From positions 1 through 64,000 of IMG/VR virus record IMGVR_UViG_3300022752_000057: a DNA stretch of 64,000 bases; one strand, 5' to 3'. Every line of letters starts with the position of its first letter. The stretch's first letter is position 1. The stretch comes from a virus. The notes under the pieces were generated by a model. The model searched no databases, had not been told where the DNA came from, and worked only from the letters and a program-made list of their open reading frames with translations. Of this stretch, positions 3,001 through 18,719 are shown piece after piece. The translations under genes were made by a program, and so were the position numbers.

Positions 3001-5359
3001 AGATGCTCAAGATATTCGTGGAAGAAATCTTAATATTGTTGGTGTCAGTACTTTAGGAACTGCTAGTGCATCATCATTAAGTGTTTCTGGGACTTCTTCT
3101 TTCATTGGAGGAATCAGTGGTTCTGAAGGTGCTGATTTAGGAAGACTTAGAGTTACAGGTATTGCAACATTAGGTCAAACCAATACCACAGGATTCTCTA
3201 ACGCTGGTGTATCTACTTTAGGCAATGCTACTGCATCAACTTTAGTAGTTTCTGGATTCTCAACACTAGGCATCACATCAGCAACAAACTTAACAGCACA
3301 GCAACTTAATATTTCTGGTGTTTCTACATTTGGTGGTAATCTTATTCCAAGTTCATCATCAGTGAATATTGGTGGTATTTCAAATCGTTTTGGTGTTGGA
3401 TACTGGTCTGATGGATCTCATTATTATGGTACTAATAAATTATTTGTTTCCAGTGGTAGTGGTTTTGGTTTGGAAGCATATGTATCTAATGCGGCGTATC
3501 TGTTATCAAATGCTGGAGGTGGATCCTCTGGTAATGTTTATATTGACACCGTTGTTGGTGGTAAAGTTATTGCATATGGATCTGGGTCAGTACAAGTTTT
3601 ACATAGTCAAAATGTAAAACTTCAAACTTCTGGTGTGGGTGTAACAGTCACTGGAATCACACAAACTGATAATTTAAGTGTAGGAACCGGTGGAACTGTA
3701 ATTACCACAACTTCTTCTGGTCTTGTTGGCATAGGAACCACAAATCCAACATCTAAACTTCATGTTGTTGGTAGTGCTCTAATTACTGGTGTCTCAACAA
3801 TTGCTAATTTCTCAATCACACCTGTAGGAACTGGAGCAACTGTTGGAGGTATTGGAGTTACTTATTATGGTGATGGTTCTCAACTCACAGGTATTTCTGC
3901 TTCTGGTGGTGTTTCTATATCAACAAACACTACCAATGCAAATCAGTATATACCTTATGCAACTTCTTTTGGATCAACCACTGGATTCGGTGCTACTACA
4001 TTATTAGTTTATAATCCTTCATCGGGTAATCTTGGCATAGGAACCACAAATCCAACATCATCACTTACAGTTCAGGGTAGCACAAGAATTACTGGCATCA
4101 CAAGCATTCGTGATGTTACAATAGACAAGAGCATTGCATCTCCAAACGCAACTGTTCCCGTTGCGATTATCGGCGTCACAACATCAGGAATTTCTACAGA
4201 GACAAATATTGATGTTGTTCTATTAGCAAAGGGCACAGGTGCAACGCTGGCTCAGGTGCCGGATGGGACGGTTGCGGGTGGGGATAAGCGGGGAACGGGT
4301 GCGACGGATTGGCAGAAAAGCCGTACTGCTGCCGCACGAGTGGCGTCAGGTGCTTACGCAACTATTACTGGGGGATCGGAAAACACTGCTTCTGGTACTT
4401 ATGCCATTGCAGGTGGATACTTAAACACCGTTTCTGGGTCATACGCAACAGTTGCTGGAGGTCAAAACAATCAAGCTAGTGGTTCTCATAACAGTGCATT
4501 AGGAGGATATAACAACAATGCTTCCGGCACAATTAGAGCAACTATTGCCGGTGGCGACAGCAACACCGCCTCCAGCAACTACAGTTTCGTCGGCGGCGGC
4601 CTGAACAACACCGCCCAAACCAACACGCACGCAACGGTGTGTGGGGGGCAAAGCAATACGGCGAGCGGGCAGAATGCGTTTGTGGGGGGTGGGGGAAGCA
4701 ATAATGCTACTGCTGCCTACGCCTTTATCGGTGGTGGATTCAGTAACACAGCTAGTACCGGTACTGCACCTACTGTTGCTGGTGGAAACAATAACAATGC
4801 ATCAGGAAATTATGCGTTTATTGGAGGTGGTGAAGCTCATATTGCCAACGCTAATCACTCCGTTGTTCTTGGTGGAAATGCAGGAACTGTTCGTTCTATT
4901 GTAGGTAATTTTGTTTTTCCTGCTTGTGCTCAACCAATTTCAGCAACTCAAGGTGTCACTCAATCCGCCCTCCTTCTGCTAGCCCGCCAAACCACTAACG
5001 CTACCGCAACAGTTCTCACAAGCGATCAAAGTGCCGCCAGCACCACCAACCAAGTCATCCTGGCCAACAACGCCGCATATTTCTTTAAGGGGTCTTGTAT
5101 TGCTGGTGTGACTGGTGCTGGTGATACAAAAGCATGGGAATTTAAAGGAGCAATCAAACGTGGTGCAAATGCTGCAGCAACATCTATTGTTGGTTCAGTC
5201 ATCAAAGATGTGATTGCTTCTGATTCTGGTGCATCTGCTTGGGACATTACCATTACTGCTGATACAACAAACGGTGGTATTGCTGTCACTGTGACTGGAC
5301 AAGCATCCACAACTATAAGATGGGTTTGCAAAATTGAGACCACCGAAATGACTTACTAA
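2..5359 (+). CDS. Giant repetitive tail fibre protein, 5' end outside window
   Basis: Tail-fibre-like protein, probably host-recognition or distal fibre. The reading frame is open from the first bases of the window: the residues before the first possible start (TTG at 59) read VGIGTTVPTSKL, the same motif that recurs inside the protein, so the gene starts upstream. At least 1785 residues are visible. It is built from short glycine/serine/threonine-rich repeats of the type SGxSTLSS, AANLTLAGxTTGLN and VPGISTLGFI. Two copies of a larger non-repeat domain (around residues 260-370 and 860-970 from base 59) share the motifs TANHGGI and YKxIMW. Near the C-terminus (4370-4860) the repeats change to GG-x-NNxASG units resembling YadA-type trimeric adhesin heads, followed by a non-repetitive C-terminal domain. 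Three GC-rich patches stand out. Function is inferred from composition and position next to a second fibre gene. Confidence 0.8.
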   Translation, partial: YSDITNDRVGIGTTVPTSKLTVVGDVRVSGVVTASSFSGNASLSQLNVTGFSTLSSASAANLTLVGVTTGLNVPGISTFGDVIISDLFLSGITTGLNSPGISTFGDVTISDLFLAGITTGLNVSGVSTLSSAVVGSAVTINGGGINVTGVVTASSFSGNASTATALQTARTFEITGDIVASPISFNGTGNVSLAATIQPNSVGLGTDTTGDYVANITGTSNQITVTSGTGEGSTPTLSLPSNLVVPQDLTVTRDLQVNRNLNVTGNITIGGTSATLFTTELKVADPDLVLGFRTDGSGNDVSNDTTANHGGIAVASTEGNPLISLYNPGIGESTLATYKKIMWFKSGSFTGLNTDAWLINYAVGIGSTQFPTGTRFAAGNVQFTQNDLAVVRNINASGIVTALSFSGNASISQLNVSGFSTLSSISAANLTLAGITTGLNVPGISTLGFITSSSLNVSGFSTLSSISAANLTLAGVTTGLNVPGISTLGSVSNTNLSVSGVSTFSGGVNASQGADLARLRVTGITTLGFITATSLNVPGISTLGFITSSSLNVSGVSTFSGGISGSEGADLSRLRVTGITTLGQTNTTGFSNAGLSTLGNATASTLVVSGFSTLSSVSAANLTLAGVTTGLNVPGISTLGFVQNTTLNVTGVSTFSGGINGSEGVDLARLRVTGITTLGFITATSLNVPGISTLGFITSSSLNVSGVSTFSGGISGSEGADLSRLRVTGISTLGQTNTTGFSNTGLSTLGNATASTLVVSGFSTLSSVSAANLTLAGVTTGLNAPGISTLGFVQHTTLNVSGFSTLGSISGANLTLAGVTTGLNASGVVTATSFSGSGANLTSLNATQLTTGTVPAARITASSGDFTVGSNLYVNGILSVGGTTVILNVQQLQISDRDITLGVTTDANGVDISTDNTANHGGISVASTVGTPLINIPTDAVNNSPSTYKQIMWVKQGHYTGLATDAWIFNYGVSIGNTSTVQNGSRLTVGAGFTVYDNYLDAQDIRGRNLNIVGVSTLGTASASSLSVSGTSSFIGGISGSEGADLGRLRVTGIATLGQTNTTGFSNAGVSTLGNATASTLVVSGFSTLGITSATNLTAQQLNISGVSTFGGNLIPSSSSVNIGGISNRFGVGYWSDGSHYYGTNKLFVSSGSGFGLEAYVSNAAYLLSNAGGGSSGNVYIDTVVGGKVIAYGSGSVQVLHSQNVKLQTSGVGVTVTGITQTDNLSVGTGGTVITTTSSGLVGIGTTNPTSKLHVVGSALITGVSTIANFSITPVGTGATVGGIGVTYYGDGSQLTGISASGGVSISTNTTNANQYIPYATSFGSTTGFGATTLLVYNPSSGNLGIGTTNPTSSLTVQGSTRITGITSIRDVTIDKSIASPNATVPVAIIGVTTSGISTETNIDVVLLAKGTGATLAQVPDGTVAGGDKRGTGATDWQKSRTAAARVASGAYATITGGSENTASGTYAIAGGYLNTVSGSYATVAGGQNNQASGSHNSALGGYNNNASGTIRATIAGGDSNTASSNYSFVGGGLNNTAQTNTHATVCGGQSNTASGQNAFVGGGGSNNATAAYAFIGGGFSNTASTGTAPTVAGGNNNNASGNYAFIGGGEAHIANANHSVVLGGNAGTVRSIVGNFVFPACAQPISATQGVTQSALLLLARQTTNATATVLTSDQSAASTTNQVILANNAAYFFKGSCIAGVTGAGDTKAWEFKGAIKRGANAAATSIVGSVIKDVIASDSGASAWDITITADTTNGGIAVTVTGQASTTIRWVCKIETTEMTY
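3831..3876 (+). repeat. 46-bp exact repeat shared by the two fibre genes (copy 1)
   Basis: This 46-bp stretch is identical to 5775-5820 in the next fibre gene and encodes GATVGGIGVTYYGDG. The flanking codons diverge but encode LTGISA in both. Confidence 0.85.
4240..5090 (+). other. GC-rich mosaic patches inside the fibre gene
   Basis: Three short stretches (about 4240-4340, 4545-4695 and 4965-5090) are conspicuously GC-rich, with G/C-ending codons, while the rest of the gene is AT-rich with A/T-ending codons. The reading frame continues through all three. This looks like segments acquired by recombination from a GC-richer phage or host fibre gene. Confidence 0.6.
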
Positions 5360-10291: not shown

Positions 10292-10447
10292 ATGAAAACT
10301 TTTAAACAATTCCAAGAAGAGTGGAGTAATAAATATAAAAAGAGTATTGATTGCTCAAATCCGAAAGGTTTTTCTCAACGTGCTCATTGTGCAGCGAGAA
10401 GAAAAAGAGCAAAGGGTGAAGAAACTAAATCAAAACCAGTTGAGTAA
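10292..10447 (+). CDS. Small basic protein with capsid-targeting-like N-terminus (51 aa)
   Basis: A 51-residue basic protein beginning MKTFKQFQEEW. The first ten residues match the pattern of the T4 capsid-targeting sequence (MKTYQEF-type) that directs internal proteins into the prohead and is cut by the gp21 protease. The cut-site match (Q-E-E) is weaker than in its relatives at 44582 and 55947. The middle carries CSNPKGFSQRAHCAARRKR, a Cys/His/Arg-rich motif. The stop overlaps the ATG of the next gene (TAATG). It may be packaged in the head; this is inference. Confidence 0.6.
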   Translation: MKTFKQFQEEWSNKYKKSIDCSNPKGFSQRAHCAARRKRAKGEETKSKPVE

Positions 10448-13218
10448 TGCCACAGATCAAGACACATAAAACAGTTGAGCAAATTGCAAAGAAGCATCGT
10501 CTTGATGTGTCTTTTATACAAAAGCAACTTGAAATGGGCGAACCAATTGAGCATGAGCATACAAAAGATCATGACTTAGCAAAAGACATTGCACTGCAAC
10601 ATCTTGATGAAATTCCGGACTATTATACACGTCTGAAAAAAATGGAGGCAGATGCTAAAAAGCATCATAAAAAATTTAAAGATGTAAAAGAGGATGCAGA
10701 TGCTGGCGTAGATGATATGGATTCACCTTTTCATGCAGTACATTCTGTTCATGTCGATCATGACAAAAGATATTGCCCGAAATGCAAAAGGGTTGAAATG
10801 AGAAAAGAATGTAAATATGGTCCAATGTATTGGGACATGTTTTCTTTACCAAAAGAACTGAAAGAAGAAACAAAGTCTGGTGATGAAGGTCTTCATGATT
10901 GGTTTAATAAATCAAAGTCAAGTGATGGTAAAAAAGGATGGGTTCAGTTAGGTGGAAAGTGGGCAGGGAAACCATGTGCTCGTCAACCGGGACAAACTTC
11001 TACACCAAAATGTGGAAGTTCCGAAATGAAGAGATCACTTTCCAAAGATGAAGAAGAATCGGCAAGAAGAAGAAAAAATATTCAAGATCCAAATCAACCA
11101 CAAAAAACAGGTGCTGCCAAACCAACAAATGTAAGAACTGAGGACATGGATTTACAAGAAGTCAAAGACAAACCAAGTAAGGGTAGTGGTAAAAAAGACG
11201 CCTGTTACAATAAAGTAAAATCAAGATATGATGTTTGGCCAAGTGCTTATGCATGTGTTCCCGAAAAAACATCAAAATCTTTAACTAAAGAAGGATGGAA
11301 AGGTATTGATGAATTAAATATTGGAGATGATATATTAACTTATAATATTCAAAAAGATGAATTGGAATTTAAACCAATAATTAATTTACATAGATATAAA
11401 AATGTAAAAACAAATATTATCAAAAGTGGAAATAATGGATTTATTTTTGAGTCAACAGATAATCATAAATGGGTGGTAAAATTACCAGAAACTACTGGTA
11501 ATCGGATTTGTAAATATGAAAGGATAAATGATAAATCTTTAATTGAAACTAGTGAAATTTTATTAAATAAAAATAATAAACATTTAGTAGTATCAGCACC
11601 ATATTTTGGAGGGACTCCAACTAAAAGTGATAAAATTTTTAAATATGGTTCTAACTGGATTAAATATATTTTAGATATAACTCAGGAACAAAGACAATCG
11701 TGGTTATTCAGTGCTATTGTATATGATGGGAATCAACAAAAAATACAAAGATTGACAGAAAATGATGAGAATGTTAATGAGTTAGACTGGATGTATACTA
11801 GTTCTTGTGAAAACAAGCAAACTTTTGGACTTAAACAAAAAGATATTCAACACAGAGATGCATTCTTATTAGCAGCTTTTTTAAATTCGGGTTTGGTGAC
11901 TTGGAAAAAATCTCCAAATAAGAATATATATTCTTGTCATTATACAAGTAATAAAAGATTCAAAAATACATCCAACTTTAAATTAATTAAAGAAAATATT
12001 TCAGATGTTTGGTGTCCAGAAACAGAAAATGGTACTTGGGTTATGATGCAAGAAACTAATGGAAATGGCATTATAACTATAACTGGTAATTCTGGAGCAC
12101 TTGTTAAGTGTCGTAAAGTTGGTGCAGACAATTGGGGAACTAAATCGGAGGCGACCATGCACGAAGAAGAAAGATATTGCCCTTTGTGCAATAAAAGAGA
12201 AACAAGATCTGAGTGTTCCTATGGTGAAAAGGCATGGGATAAAGTTTCTGTAAAAGACCACGAATACTCAATGGTTCGTTCAGAACTTAAAACAATCATG
12301 AATGCAGCGAAAAGACTTAATGCAAAAGTAGGAAAGGGTGAAGGAAATCTTGAGGCATGGGTGCAGTCAAAAATTACTAAGGCAGCAGATTATATTGATA
12401 CAGCAGCTGATTATGTTACAAGTGGAGAGATGGAAGAGCAAAGATTAACAGATAAAATTATTGATGAAATTTTAAATGAAAAATGTTGGTCTGGTTATAA
12501 GAAAAAGGGAATGAAGACAATGTTTGGAAAAAGATATCCAAATTGTGTAAAAGCAGAAGATGTATCACTAGAAGATGCAGATGGAAATACTTTTGCAGAA
12601 GTCATTGATTTAATTAAACCAGATCCAATTCAGGGTACGGCATCACAACCAGAAAAAGTCGAAGAAATGGTGAGACTTCAGTCAGAAAATGGAAACGTTG
12701 TTGCAATTACATTATCTTGGAGAGGAAAGTATTATGCAATTCAGATGTTCTTTCCACAATCAAAACTTCCAAGTCGTCAAGAAATAGCAGCAGAAATTCA
12801 GAAGATTTATCCAGACTCAAGATTAGTTCATCATTCAGTATCTGAAATTCAACCAGGTCAACCAATTATTAGAGTTGGATATCAGGGAGGAAGTCCTGCA
12901 AAATTAGGACCAAATAAAAATTATGTAAAACCAATGGGAGAAGAAGTTGAGATTGATGAGGATTGGCAATCAGTTAATCGTAAGGATAAAACTGATGGAT
13001 TAAGTCAAGCAGCAGTAAATGCTTATCGTCGTGAGAATCCTGGTTCAAAACTCCAAACTGCAGTGACTGAAAAGAATCCATCAGGTAAAAGAGCAAAACG
13101 TCGTGCATCATTTTGCCGTAGAATGAAGGGAATGAAATCAAAACTGACTTCTGCAAAAACTTCAAGAGATCCAGATTCAAGAATTAACAAAGCACTTCGC
13201 CGTTGGAATTGTAGTTGA
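10447..13218 (+). CDS. Probable virion protein with zinc-ribbon repeats, interrupted by an intein
   Basis: A 923-residue precursor. Residues 270-548 are an intein, so the spliced product would be 644 residues. The host protein has two copies of a Cys-rich motif of the form RYCPxCxK...ExRxECxYG followed by WD (near residues 110-135 and 578-603), which look like paired zinc-binding knuckles. It also has a CWSGYKKKGMKTMFGKRYPNC motif. Its C-terminus is strongly basic (FCRRMKGMK, SRINKALRRWNCS) and resembles a small domain seen at the ends of several phage proteins (DUF6321-like, from memory). The splice junction would join PSAYA to SGALVKCRKVG. No catalytic residues are recognised. Between fibre genes and terminase, a structural or packaged role is plausible. 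Confidence 0.65.
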   Translation: MPQIKTHKTVEQIAKKHRLDVSFIQKQLEMGEPIEHEHTKDHDLAKDIALQHLDEIPDYYTRLKKMEADAKKHHKKFKDVKEDADAGVDDMDSPFHAVHSVHVDHDKRYCPKCKRVEMRKECKYGPMYWDMFSLPKELKEETKSGDEGLHDWFNKSKSSDGKKGWVQLGGKWAGKPCARQPGQTSTPKCGSSEMKRSLSKDEEESARRRKNIQDPNQPQKTGAAKPTNVRTEDMDLQEVKDKPSKGSGKKDACYNKVKSRYDVWPSAYACVPEKTSKSLTKEGWKGIDELNIGDDILTYNIQKDELEFKPIINLHRYKNVKTNIIKSGNNGFIFESTDNHKWVVKLPETTGNRICKYERINDKSLIETSEILLNKNNKHLVVSAPYFGGTPTKSDKIFKYGSNWIKYILDITQEQRQSWLFSAIVYDGNQQKIQRLTENDENVNELDWMYTSSCENKQTFGLKQKDIQHRDAFLLAAFLNSGLVTWKKSPNKNIYSCHYTSNKRFKNTSNFKLIKENISDVWCPETENGTWVMMQETNGNGIITITGNSGALVKCRKVGADNWGTKSEATMHEEERYCPLCNKRETRSECSYGEKAWDKVSVKDHEYSMVRSELKTIMNAAKRLNAKVGKGEGNLEAWVQSKITKAADYIDTAADYVTSGEMEEQRLTDKIIDEILNEKCWSGYKKKGMKTMFGKRYPNCVKAEDVSLEDADGNTFAEVIDLIKPDPIQGTASQPEKVEEMVRLQSENGNVVAITLSWRGKYYAIQMFFPQSKLPSRQEIAAEIQKIYPDSRLVHHSVSEIQPGQPIIRVGYQGGSPAKLGPNKNYVKPMGEEVEIDEDWQSVNRKDKTDGLSQAAVNAYRRENPGSKLQTAVTEKNPSGKRAKRRASFCRRMKGMKSKLTSAKTSRDPDSRINKALRRWNCS
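11254..12090 (+). mobile_element. Intein (279 aa) in the 10447 gene
   Basis: It begins with Cys (CVPEKTSKSLTKEGW), followed by IDELNIGDDILTYN, a typical intein block A. Block B has the TDNH (TxxH) motif. The C-terminal block reads ITITGN followed by Ser +1 of the extein. The residue before the terminal Asn is Gly instead of the usual His. Between the splicing halves, segments such as LFSAIVYDGN and LLAAFLNSG look like a diverged LAGLIDADG endonuclease. Base composition is even more AT-rich than the host gene. The boundaries place a continuous SAYA-SGALVKC extein at the junction. Confidence 0.85.
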
Positions 13219-15100: not shown

Positions 15101-16966
15101 ATGAGTGATGTATACCTTGGTAATCCGCTTTTAAAAAAAGCAAATACACAAATTGAATTTACTCAAGAACAAATACTTGAATTTGTCAAATGTAAGGATG
15201 ATCCTGTTTATTTTGCAAACAATTATGTCAAGATTGTAACTCTTGATCATGGACTGCAAACTTTTAAACCATATCATTTTCAAGAGAAATTAATTAATAA
15301 TTTCCACCAAAACAGATTTAATATCTGCAAGATGCCTCGTCAGACAGGCAAAGCTTTGTCATTAGATACACCAATTCCAACTCCAAATGGTTGGACAACT
15401 ATGGGAGATCTTAAAGTTGGCGATGACATTTTATCACCAACTGGAGATTCTGTTTCAGTTATAATGAAGACCGAAACAATGTATAATCATGATTGTTATA
15501 AAATATATTTTGATAATGGTGAAGAAATAATTGCCGATGCTGAGCATTTGTGGGAAGTGAATAGTTCGTATTGGAGAACTGGAAAAAAAGTTATAACTTC
15601 TAAGGATATATTTGACCAGTATCAATCAAAAATAAAAAATAAAAGGGGAAGAGGATTTCAAGGATCTTTATTTGTAGATAAATCAAAACCAATCAACTTT
15701 ATCAAAAATGTATTAAATATTGATCCATATCTTCTTGGTGTTTGGTTGGGTGATGGATATTCTTATGATGGAAGAATAATTGCACATAAAGACGATTACT
15801 ATTTCTATAAAGAAAAGTTTAATATAGAACATGAAAGAGAATCTAATAATTGTATTAGATTTAAAATTAAAAATTTACATTCCAAGTTAAAAGAGTATAA
15901 CTTAATTAAAAATAAACACATTCCACTAAAATATCTCCGTTCATCCTATGAAGACAGATTGGAACTTCTTCGTGGTTTAATGGATACTGATGGATCTGTT
16001 AGAAAAAACAGCAGATCATTTGAATTTTATCAAAAAAATTATGATTTAATCTTACAGGTTGTTGAGTTACTTTCTTCTCTTGGTATAAAATCAACTGTAA
16101 GACGAAAAGAAATTAAAGGAAATTTTTATTACACTGTATCTTTTTCAACTAAAGAAAGAGTATTTAATCTTCCAAGAAAGATTAAAAATATAAATTTAAA
16201 AAAGTCAGAAAGAAAGCAAGAAAGTAGACATTATATTCATAGAATAGAAAAAGTTGATAGTGTACCAGTTGCATGTATACAAGTTAATAGTGAAGATCAT
16301 TTATTTTTGTGTGGTAAAACTTTTATTCCTACACATAATTCAACAACTGTTGTTGCATTTCTTTTGCACTATGCAGTTTTTAACGATAATGTAAATATTG
16401 GTATTCTTGCAAACAAAGCAGCTACTGCAAGAGAACTTTTAGATAGATTGCAGACTGCATATGAGAATCTACCAAAGTGGATGCAGCAAGGTATTATTTC
16501 TTGGAATAAAGGTTCTTTAGAGTTAGAAAATGGATCAAAGATTTTAGCAGCATCCACATCAGCATCTGCTGTTCGTGGTATGTCTTTTAATATTTTGTTC
16601 TTGGATGAATTTGCATTCGTTCCAAATCATATTGCTGATTCTTTCTTCGCATCCGTTTATCCAACAATTACTTCAGGTAAACAAACTAAAGTTATTATAG
16701 TTTCCACTCCACATGGTATGAATCACTTCTACCGAATGTGGCATGATGCAGAAAAAGGAAAAAATGAATATGTTTATACTGATGTTCATTGGTCTGAAGT
16801 TCCTGGTAGAGATGATGAGTGGAAAAAGCAAACAATTGCAAACACATCTGAACAACAGTTTAAAGTTGAGTTTGAATGCTTGGGTGGAGAAACTTTAATA
16901 GAAATACAAGATGATAATGAAAGTATCAGTAAAATATCTATGGAAGATTTATATGATAGAATGTGA
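15101..16966 (+). CDS. 17: Terminase large subunit gp17, N-terminal part with internal intein and N-half of a split intein
   Basis: ATPase half of the DNA-packaging motor. The 621-residue polypeptide contains, in order: N-extein 1-84, ending in the P-loop MPRQTGK; a complete intein 85-413; the rest of the ATPase domain 414-592, restarting STTVVAFLL, with Walker B ILFLDEFAF near residue 500 and the coupling motif VIIVSTPHG; and a 29-residue N-terminal half-intein 593-621 starting CLGGETLIE. The stop at 16964 is therefore not the end of the terminase: the nuclease half lies at 17556-18719. Two excisions (one in cis, one in trans) are needed to make a functional protein of about 547 residues, a normal size for cyanophage gp17. 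Confidence 0.92.
   Translation: MSDVYLGNPLLKKANTQIEFTQEQILEFVKCKDDPVYFANNYVKIVTLDHGLQTFKPYHFQEKLINNFHQNRFNICKMPRQTGKALSLDTPIPTPNGWTTMGDLKVGDDILSPTGDSVSVIMKTETMYNHDCYKIYFDNGEEIIADAEHLWEVNSSYWRTGKKVITSKDIFDQYQSKIKNKRGRGFQGSLFVDKSKPINFIKNVLNIDPYLLGVWLGDGYSYDGRIIAHKDDYYFYKEKFNIEHERESNNCIRFKIKNLHSKLKEYNLIKNKHIPLKYLRSSYEDRLELLRGLMDTDGSVRKNSRSFEFYQKNYDLILQVVELLSSLGIKSTVRRKEIKGNFYYTVSFSTKERVFNLPRKIKNINLKKSERKQESRHYIHRIEKVDSVPVACIQVNSEDHLFLCGKTFIPTHNSTTVVAFLLHYAVFNDNVNIGILANKAATARELLDRLQTAYENLPKWMQQGIISWNKGSLELENGSKILAASTSASAVRGMSFNILFLDEFAFVPNHIADSFFASVYPTITSGKQTKVIIVSTPHGMNHFYRMWHDAEKGKNEYVYTDVHWSEVPGRDDEWKKQTIANTSEQQFKVEFECLGGETLIEIQDDNESISKISMEDLYDRM
15353..16339 (+). mobile_element. Class-3-like LAGLIDADG intein in the gp17 P-loop
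   Basis: 329 codons inserted between Lys and Ser-Thr of the Walker A motif (RQTGK / STTVV). The first residue is Ala rather than Cys or Ser (ALSLDTPIPTPNGW). The class 3 signature Trp-Cys-Thr can be read: Trp in block B (AEHLWEV), Cys in block F (VPVACIQV) and Thr in block G (IPTHN). Two dodecapeptides, LLGVWLGDGY and LLRGLMDTDGS, identify a LAGLIDADG homing endonuclease domain. It ends His-Asn with Ser +1. The class assignment follows the published Trp-Cys-Thr rule and would need splicing tests. Confidence 0.88.
16877..16963 (+). mobile_element. N-half of split terminase intein (29 aa)
   Basis: Begins with the nucleophile Cys after VEFE and runs only 29 residues (block A, CLGGETLIEI) to the stop. 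A very short N-half paired with a roughly 100-residue C-half matches the atypically split AceL-TerL intein described from a viral metagenome, also in a terminase. Confidence 0.85.
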
Positions 16967-16993: not shown

Positions 16994-17563
16994 ATGTATT
17001 ATATCTATTTTCTTAAAGATTTAAATAACAAAGTTCAGTATATTGGACAAACTCAAAATCCAGATACTAGAAGAAGAGAACATAAAAGAAATAAACCACC
17101 ACATACTTTTGAATTGATAGAGCAACTTCAAGTTTCATTGGAAGCAAAAAATTTGGAAATCGAATACATAAAAAAATATGATACTTATAAAAATGGATGG
17201 AATAAATCTCCAGGAGGAGAAGGATTTGAAAACTATGATAGAAGTGGTATTGGTGGCGTAAAGAAAGGGAATATACCTTGGAATAAAGATGTTAAGCATT
17301 GTTTTTCCGAAGAAACAATCAATAAAATGAAATCTGCGAGAAAAGGTAGAGTTTTTAGTAGAAAAATAACTGATGATCAAATTAAAGAAATAAGAGATTT
17401 ATATGAAAAAAGTCCTCATTTGAATGATGTTGGTTTAATAATGAAAAATGGCAAAAAAATGTCATATATACAATCATTTTGTAAAGAATATTGCAGTAAA
17501 TATAATATAACTCCACAAGGAATGAAAAGAATTATTTTGAGAGAGTGTTGGAAAAATGTTTAA
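16994..17563 (+). CDS. GIY-YIG homing endonuclease between the split intein halves
   Basis: 189 residues. The first 30 residues carry the GIY-YIG module: YIYFL, then VQYIGQTQNPDTRRREHKR with the catalytic Arg and the conserved Gly-x-Thr. The middle has SEETINKMKSARKGR, a NUMOD3-like DNA-binding motif, followed by a Lys-rich C-terminal region with a possible helix-turn-helix. It starts 27 bases after the N-half stop, and its end overlaps the ATG of the C-half gene by 8 bases, so translation of the C-half may be coupled to it. A free-standing endonuclease here would cut intein-less or uninterrupted gene 17 in co-infecting phages and spread the whole cassette. Fusion to the intein is excluded by the stops. 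Confidence 0.88.
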   Translation: MYYIYFLKDLNNKVQYIGQTQNPDTRRREHKRNKPPHTFELIEQLQVSLEAKNLEIEYIKKYDTYKNGWNKSPGGEGFENYDRSGIGGVKKGNIPWNKDVKHCFSEETINKMKSARKGRVFSRKITDDQIKEIRDLYEKSPHLNDVGLIMKNGKKMSYIQSFCKEYCSKYNITPQGMKRIILRECWKNV

Positions 17564-17864
17564 ACTTAATAAAAAATTTCAAGTAAAAACTCCAACGGGG
17601 TTTAAATATTTTTCAGGAATTCAAAAAGTCTATAAACCATTTTATCATCAAATAATTTTTGATGATGGTACTGAAATAAAGTGTTCGGATAAACATGCTT
17701 TTGGGGCAGAAAAAATAAGAGCAGATTCAATAAAAGTAGATGATATTATACAAGGAAAAAAAGTTGTATATAATGAAATTGTAGAAAAAGGAATATATCT
17801 TTATGATCTACTTGATGTTGGAGAAGATAATCTTTACTATTCAAACAATCTTATCTCACACAAT
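17556..17864 (+). mobile_element. C-half of split terminase intein (103 aa)
   Basis: Begins MFKLNKKFQVKTPTGFKYF and ends NLISHN with Cys +1 of the extein. Block B reads CSDKH, so Cys stands where Thr is usual. Block F has LYDLLDV and the penultimate His is present. Length and sequence feel closely match the 104-residue C-half of AceL-TerL (from memory). Confidence 0.85.
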
Positions 17865-18719
17865 TGTGAATTCTTAGGATCTGTTGATACACTAATTGCA
17901 CCATCTAAACTCAGAAACCTCGTCTACGACCACCCCAAGACCCGTAGTGCAGGTTTAGATGTTTATGTGGATCCTGAAGAGAATCATGACTATTTGATTA
18001 CTGTAGACGTTGCTAGAGGTGTAGGGAATGATTATTCAGCATTTACCGTAATTGATATTACACAATTTCCTCATAGAGTTGTAGCAAAATATAGAAACAA
18101 TGAAATTAAACCAATGCTGTTTCCAAGTATTATTAGTGAAATTGGAAAAAGTTACAGCGATGCATATATTTTATGTGAGGTAAATGATGTTGGAGATCAA
18201 GTAGCAAGTATTCTTCAGTATGACTTGGAATATAAAAATCTTTTGATGTGTTCTATGCGGGGAAGAGCAGGACAAATTGTTGGACAAGGATTTTCTGGAA
18301 AGAAAACTCAACTTGGAGTTAAGATGTCCAAGACTGTAAAAAAAGTTGGATGTCTCAATCTTAAAACAATGATTGAGGAAGACAAGTTATACTTAAATGA
18401 TTATGAGATTATTTCAGAATTAACAACATTTATACAAAAACATAATTCATTTGAGGCAGAAGAAGGTTGCAATGATGACCTAGCAATGTGTTTAGTCATA
18501 TATGCTTGGTTAGTTGCACAAGATTATTTTAAAGAACTTACGGATCAAGATGTAAGAAAACGTTTATATGAAGAACAAAAAAATCAAATTGAGCAGGATA
18601 TGTCTCCATTTGGATTTATATCTGATGGATTAGACTCAAATAGTTTTGTTGATGTTGATGGCGATAGATGGTTTGTTGATGAGTATGGTGATCGTTCTTA
18701 CATGTGGGAGTACATGTAA
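17556..18719 (+). CDS. 17: Terminase large subunit gp17, C-terminal part: C-half of split intein plus nuclease domain
   Basis: 387 residues. Residues 1-103 are the C-terminal half-intein, and residues 104-387 are the terminase C-extein starting CEFLGSVDTLI. The RNase H-like nuclease domain that cuts concatemeric DNA is visible: Asp in YLITVDVARGVGNDYSAF, Glu in ILCEVNDVGDQ and the distal Asp in CNDDLAMCLVIYAW. Trans-splicing with the protein encoded at 15101-16966 would fuse ATPase and nuclease. The ATG lies inside the end of the GIY-YIG gene. Without splicing the two enzymatic domains stay on separate polypeptides, each with a half-intein attached. Confidence 0.92.
   Translation: MFKLNKKFQVKTPTGFKYFSGIQKVYKPFYHQIIFDDGTEIKCSDKHAFGAEKIRADSIKVDDIIQGKKVVYNEIVEKGIYLYDLLDVGEDNLYYSNNLISHNCEFLGSVDTLIAPSKLRNLVYDHPKTRSAGLDVYVDPEENHDYLITVDVARGVGNDYSAFTVIDITQFPHRVVAKYRNNEIKPMLFPSIISEIGKSYSDAYILCEVNDVGDQVASILQYDLEYKNLLMCSMRGRAGQIVGQGFSGKKTQLGVKMSKTVKKVGCLNLKTMIEEDKLYLNDYEIISELTTFIQKHNSFEAEEGCNDDLAMCLVIYAWLVAQDYFKELTDQDVRKRLYEEQKNQIEQDMSPFGFISDGLDSNSFVDVDGDRWFVDEYGDRSYMWEYM

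What the first reader, a model, noticed from the sequence alone, without database searches (positions are those of the whole stretch)
15353..16339. Class-3-like intein with Ala1 inside the Walker A motif
The intein starts with Ala and has the Trp-Cys-Thr set in blocks B, F and G (AEHLW, PVACI, IPTHN), the published hallmark of class 3 inteins, which use an internal Cys as branch point. It interrupts RQTGK / ST, the P-loop, so no packaging ATPase exists until it splices.
Basis: partly seen in the sequence, partly recalled or inferred. Interest (0 to 1): 0.7.

Follow-up and report, generated by a model that had tools for sequence, protein, structure and literature searches.

The report
Class 3 intein in phage terminase
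A T4-like phage's DNA-packaging motor gene carries a mobile self-splicing protein insert, of a known kind with an unusual splicing chemistry, exactly in its ATP-binding loop, and a second, split insert further on, so the motor probably has to be pieced together twice before it can work.

Summary
Confirmed. Window 15353-16339 (+) is a 329-residue intein between Lys and Ser of the P-loop (RQTGK^ST) of a T4-type large terminase. It has Ala1, block B Trp67, block F Cys308, block G Thr327, a C-terminal His-Asn, Ser+1 and a LAGLIDADG domain with both acidic residues. Its best matches among solved structures are two known class 3 inteins (Msm DnaBi1, Mch DnaB1); a high-confidence model fits Msm DnaBi1 at 1.2 A; a tree with the class-defining columns masked puts it in a 31-row clade with both (93/96, below the tool's strong mark). 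WCT is complete in 79 of 79 intact IMG/VR relatives. The same site holds class 3 inteins in named phages (B23, RaK2, fENko-Kae01, ECD7) and is empty in 79 of 80 closest terminases. The intein DNA is 94% identical to a relative whose flanks are about 77% identical: lateral movement. New member of a known kind. Open: actual splicing, and whether Cys48/Cys308, redox-active in Msm DnaBi1, is a switch here.

The parts
15101..15352 (+). TerL (gp17-like) N-extein, 84 aa, ending in P-loop half RQTGK
   Evidence: ORF; split given
15353..16339 (+). Class 3 intein, 329 aa, Ala1 to Asn329, +1 Ser
15494..15496 (+). Cys48 codon, aligned with Cys48 of Msm DnaBi1, the disulfide partner of the catalytic Cys there
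15545..15553 (+). Block B His65-Leu66-Trp67 (W of WCT)
15689..16222 (+). LAGLIDADG homing endonuclease region, about residues 113-290 (borders inferred); acidic Asp134 and Asp213
   Evidence: Pfam PF14528 over residues 202-269; fold match to PI-SceI; acids
16274..16276 (+). Block F Cys308, predicted branch-point nucleophile (C of WCT)
16310..16312 (+). Cys320, an extra Cys invariant in this terminase family (30 of 30 aligned; 79 of 79 intact loci)
16331..16339 (+). Block G Thr327-His328-Asn329 (T of WCT and terminal Asn)
16340..16876 (+). TerL middle extein, 179 aa, rest of the ATPase domain, starting STTVVAF and ending FE
   Evidence: Pfam Terminase_6N; border
16877..16963 (+). IntN (29 aa) of a second, naturally split intein of AceL-TerL type, Cys1
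   Evidence: IntC partner
16994..17563 (+). Free-standing GIY-YIG homing endonuclease gene between the two split-intein halves
   Evidence: PF01541 E 6.2e-8; phrog_314; homolog in 76 of 80 IntC loci
17556..17864 (+). IntC (103 aa) of the split intein; its ATG overlaps the stop of the GIY-YIG gene
   Evidence: CatC 6dsl E 4.7e-49; overlap
17865..18719 (+). TerL C-extein, 284 aa plus stop (nuclease domain), +1 Cys
   Evidence: Pfam Terminase_6C

Best explanation
The element is a full-length, mobile class 3 intein with a LAGLIDADG endonuclease, sitting at a popular homing site in the Walker A codons of a T4-type phage terminase. Inferred splicing: Cys308, held by His65 and Thr327, attacks the Lys(-1)-Ala1 bond and forms the branched thioester; Ser+1 takes over the N-extein; Asn329 cyclizes; an acyl shift restores RQTGK-ST. 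Inferred mobility: in a mixed infection the endonuclease cuts intein-less terL alleles and repair copies the intein in. Shown here: anatomy, homology, conservation, purifying selection, empty sites, and intein DNA that is more alike than its flanks. Not shown: splicing, cleavage, branch point. A second, AceL-TerL-type split intein further down must trans-splice as well to give the predicted 547-aa TerL.
For: Hallmarks and border; LAGLIDADG_3 E 3.2e-13 for the intein alone; best PDB matches are class 3 DnaB inteins; model pLDDT 93.3 fits 6bs8 Z 21.6, 1.2 A over 125 residues, 41% identity, and PI-SceI 1ef0 Z 26.9 over 314; tree with residue 1 and WCT columns masked; WCT 79/79, endonuclease block C Asp 79/79, block E Asp 77/79; median dN/dS 0.16 in the endonuclease region and 0.037 in the C-terminal splicing part; empty site in 79 of 80; window versus L002 intein 94% nt, adjoining 30-nt flanks 77% each; same site in B23, RaK2, fENko-Kae01 and ECD7 TerL.
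Against: No biochemistry. The tree clade with the proven members has 93/96, under the tool's strong mark, its bootstrap had not settled, and several class 1 rows are long branches. Across the 40 intein-bearing relatives of equal length with enough flank, intein and C-extein identity to the window have nearly equal medians (80.4% and 80.1%; intein higher in 31 of 40), so the transfer signal rests on the nearest relatives.
Confidence: 0.93

Rival explanations
1. It is a class 2-like or degenerate class 1 intein in which Ser+1 attacks the N-junction directly and the block F Cys is incidental.
For: Ala1 alone also fits class 2, and the branch point was not tested.
Against: Block F Cys and block G Thr are kept in 79 of 79 intact relatives; nearest solved structures are class 3; class 2 inteins as described in PMC7891396 use a Cys at +1 (passage), here it is Ser.
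Confidence: 0.04
2. The intein is a dead or very slowly splicing insert, and packaging relies on another terminase.
For: No expression or splicing data; the terL gene is broken at two places.
Against: Low dN/dS in every part, invariant catalytic residues, intact open frame. No other copy of the intein in the 71,102-base record; a second terL was not searched for, and the record may be incomplete.
Confidence: 0.03
3. Beyond being a class 3 intein, it is domesticated as a redox switch: Cys48 and Cys308 form a disulfide under oxidation and hold back TerL, as reported for Msm DnaBi1.
For: Cys48 and catalytic Cys align with Cys48 and Cys118 of Msm DnaBi1, which form a disulfide under H2O2 (PMC6195587, passages); Cys48 in 79 of 79 intact relatives, extra Cys320 in 79 of 79.
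Against: All Cys48 mutants of Msm DnaBi1 lose splicing, so conservation can be structural; Kae01 and RaK2 have Met and L083 Thr at this place; the site is empty in most near relatives; distances in the model could not be measured.
Confidence: 0.12

Closest known systems
TerL class 3 inteins of Synechococcus phage B23, Klebsiella phages RaK2 and fENko-Kae01, Escherichia phage ECD7
   Same: Same gene and the same P-loop site RQxGK^(S/T)T, Ala1, block F Cys, PTHN end, endonuclease-sized (329-342 aa)
   Different: 68%, 40%, 45% and 37% identity over the intein; +1 is Thr in these four, Ser here
Msm DnaBi1 (PDB 6bs8) and M. chimaera DnaB1 (6rix), solved class 3 inteins
   Same: Splicing domain (1.2 A over 125 residues for 6bs8), Ala1, WCT, Cys48
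   Different: Host is bacterial DnaB helicase; the solved chains (139 and 145 residues) have no endonuclease domain; no Cys at the place of Cys320
Mycobacteriophage TerL inteins (PMC5050341, passages)
   Same: Phage TerL ATPase domain, some class 3
   Different: Terminase_1 and terminase_6-like hosts of mycobacteriophages
AceL-TerL / GOS-TerL / Cat atypical split inteins (PMC11766414, passages; PDB 6dsl)
   Same: The second, split intein of this TerL: short IntN (29 aa; AceL 25, Cat 30), about 103-aa IntC, Cys1 and Cys+1
   Different: Separate element from the one in the finding; here a GIY-YIG gene lies between the halves

Membership tests
Class 3 intein | No Cys nucleophile at residue 1 | tested here: met
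   Ala1; A 70, S 5, P 4 of 79 intact relatives
Class 3 intein | Trp in block B, Cys in block F position 4, Thr in block G position 5 | tested here: met
   W67, C308, T327; 79 of 79
Class 3 intein | Groups with proven class 3 inteins when the hallmark columns are left out | tested here: met
   31-row clade with 6bs8 and 6rix, 93/96, below the tool's strong mark
Class 3 intein | HINT fold like a solved class 3 intein | tested here: met
   Z 21.6, 1.2 A, 125 residues to 6bs8
Class 3 intein | Branched intermediate on the block F Cys | not testable with these tools
   needs biochemistry
LAGLIDADG intein endonuclease | Two LAGLIDADG motifs with acidic residues | tested here: met
   LLGVWLGDG and RGLMDTDG in the window; PF14528
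LAGLIDADG intein endonuclease | Cuts the intein-less allele | not testable with these tools
   needs a cleavage assay
Class 2 intein | Ala1, Cys+1, no block F nucleophile | tested here: not met
   Ser+1 and Cys308 present
AceL-TerL type split intein (second element) | Very short IntN and long IntC in TerL, class 1 residues | tested here: met
   29 aa and 103 aa, Cys1 and Cys+1; CatC match
AceL-TerL type split intein (second element) | Trans-splicing | not testable with these tools
   needs expression of both halves

The most novel reading that the evidence does not exclude
The packaging motor is doubly gated: a redox-sensitive class 3 cis intein in the P-loop (Cys48-Cys308 toggle, with Cys320 as a further partner peculiar to this terminase lineage) and a split class 1 intein that joins ATPase and nuclease halves, so that packaging starts only when two chemically different splicing reactions are allowed, for instance late in infection of a photosynthetic host.
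Probability: 0.08. Interest if true: 0.75.

Novelty: new member of a known kind. Interest (0 to 1): 0.3.

Why it matters
It adds a well-supported class 3 intein in a T4-type terminase from an environmental phage. The P-loop site is held by different class 3 inteins (also with Ser, Pro or Met at residue 1) in this terminase family and by a Cys1, class 1-looking intein in Vibrio phage VP-1, so one site is used by two splicing chemistries. Conservation of the Cys48/catalytic Cys pair makes the redox-switch idea from mycobacterial DnaB testable in an unrelated host protein.

Tried and rejected
Pfam/NCBIfam scans of the intein found only the endonuclease part or intein-bearing proteins; the TIGR01445 intein_Nterm model found nothing in the own record at E 0.01, so the general model misses it although it rings in 4 of 14 control genomes. 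Tori and Perler 2011 is not held. AY500153 and NC_009878 (sought as the Bethlehem phage, numbers recalled) are not in the phage collection. Paper searches: 'split intein, terminase, AceL' 0 papers; 'inteins, terminase large subunit, P-loop, homing endonuclease' 0. Two regular expressions of mine for the block B Trp failed: one search gave 4 '?' and one search gave 72 '?'; the 'W' column printed is one residue off; the counts used come. Whole-structure rows (PI-SceI) outrank class 3 rows in fold searches because they also carry an endonuclease; rank there was not used as evidence of class. I considered a chance motif, an insertion domain of TerL and class 2, and rejected them as given above.

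Full report
What is there. The window lies in a virus record of 71,102 bases with T4-type head and tail genes: portal gp20, capsid gp23, scaffold and UvsW, tail sheath. The terminase ORF 15101-16966 is open through the finding. The 329-aa insert 15353-16339 sits between RQTGK and STTVVAF.

Class. Residue 1 is Ala; Trp67, Cys308 and Thr327 are the WCT set; the end is His-Asn and +1 is Ser. In print, class 3 inteins were defined as lacking Cys at residue 1 and having the block F Cys; 1701 were counted, 82.5% with LAGLIDADG motifs (PMC7891396 section 6). The best solved-structure matches are the class 3 DnaB inteins 6bs8 (9.9e-27) and 6rix (7.6e-25); the class 1 gp41-1 is much weaker (6qaz 9.3e-6; its WCT-engineered variant 6riz 2.4e-8). 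AlphaFold2 gave mean pLDDT 93.3; VIA-align gave Z 21.6, 1.2 A over 125 residues, 41% identity to 6bs8, against Z 17.7, 1.6 A, 30% to gp41-1. The tree of 41 splicing domains, with residue 1 and the WCT columns masked, puts the window in a 31-row class 3 clade with 6bs8 and 6rix (93/96, under the strong mark); all class 3 rows together hang on a weak branch (28/0), the bootstrap had not settled, and several class 1 rows are long branches.

Family and site. The search for related loci in IMG/VR found 104 relatives and kept 80. In 79 with an intact intein, W67, C308 and T327 are all present; residue 1 is A 70, S 5, P 4; +1 is S 55, T 24. All 79 have a R[QL]xGK left flank; that flank was part of the search pattern, which found 79 of 80, L020 being cut off. 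In GenBank phages 761 of 50,697 records match. In B23, RaK2, fENko-Kae01 and ECD7 the intein is at the same P-loop position of TerL; PMC5259590 already notes a Hint plus LAGLIDADG element in the RaK2 and K64-1 terminases. Vibrio phage VP-1 has a Cys1, class 1-looking intein without room for an endonuclease (179 aa) at the same point, RQSGK^TT.

Mobility. The endonuclease region keeps block C Asp in 79 of 79 and block E Asp in 77 of 79. Over pairs among 43 equal-length sequences, median dN/dS is 0.163 in the endonuclease region, 0.164 in the N-terminal and 0.037 in the C-terminal splicing part, 0.084 in the C-extein (pairs with dS under 0.1 or over 2 were left out, and the 36-codon N-extein is mostly saturated). 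The window and L002 share 94% of intein bases but 77% of the adjoining 30 bases on each side; synonymous divergence is 0.16-0.34 in the three intein parts against 0.98 in the C-extein. This is a lateral-transfer signal without a visible co-conversion tract. Over all 40 usable relatives the medians are nearly equal (80.4% and 80.1%), the intein being higher in 31.

The second element. Downstream the terminase is broken again: a 29-aa IntN (16877-16963), a GIY-YIG gene (16994-17563), a 103-aa IntC (17556-17864) whose ATG overlaps the endonuclease stop, and a 284-aa C-extein. IntC matches the consensus atypical intein CatC (6dsl) at 4.7e-49; AceL-TerL has a 25-aa and Cat a 30-aa IntN (PMC11766414 passages). 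A GIY-YIG homolog is found in 76 of 80 IMG/VR loci fetched by IntC (some are cut by contig ends). Of the 80 loci with the P-loop intein, 20 have a split intein at this FE^(C/S) site, 52 none, 3 an intein at a third TerL site, and 5 end too early.

Redox lead. In Msm DnaBi1 the catalytic Cys118 forms a disulfide with Cys48 under H2O2 and splicing stops, yet all Cys48 mutants are dead (PMC6195587 passages). The window intein has Cys48 at the aligned place, kept in 79 of 79 intact relatives, and a further Cys320, also 79 of 79; among 19 other phage inteins aligned as class 3, 11 have Cys at position 48 (count from the rows). A switch is possible, but conservation may only reflect a structural need.

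Verdict. New member of a known kind.

Noticed in passing
window 10447-13218: A further intein candidate in a 923-aa protein with DUF5661/DUF6321 domains: begins CVPEKTSKSLTKEGW after YA and ends TGN before SGALVKC; weak Hint match, E 0.0074.
   Followed up: partly
L039, L043, L062: A third TerL intein site: Cys1 intein in IIVS^C..HQ^TPKG (or VVVS^C), ending in Gln, together with the P-loop class 3 intein.
   Followed up: partly
L265 (Lactococcus phage LW81) and L267 (Staphylococcus phage Alsa_3): Two related inteins share a block F Cys and block G Thr but have Ile in place of Trp; one starts with Cys, the other with Ala: a possible class 1/class 3 intermediate pair. The Alsa_3 one is spread over two annotated genes.
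   Followed up: no
L264 (Escherichia phage PD112) 115-2706: TerL broken at the Walker B region by split-intein-like halves with a free-standing gene between them.
   Followed up: no
L266 (Shigella phage ESh36) 792-3772: Primase/helicase gene broken in the same fashion with another gene between the halves.
   Followed up: no
L175 near 4492-4501: Split TerL intein with only 9 bases between the IntN stop and the IntC start: the GIY-YIG gene is absent but the split remains.
   Followed up: no
L072, L073, L075, L077: P-loop class 3 inteins that begin with Pro (GK^PFSLDT) rather than Ala.
   Followed up: no
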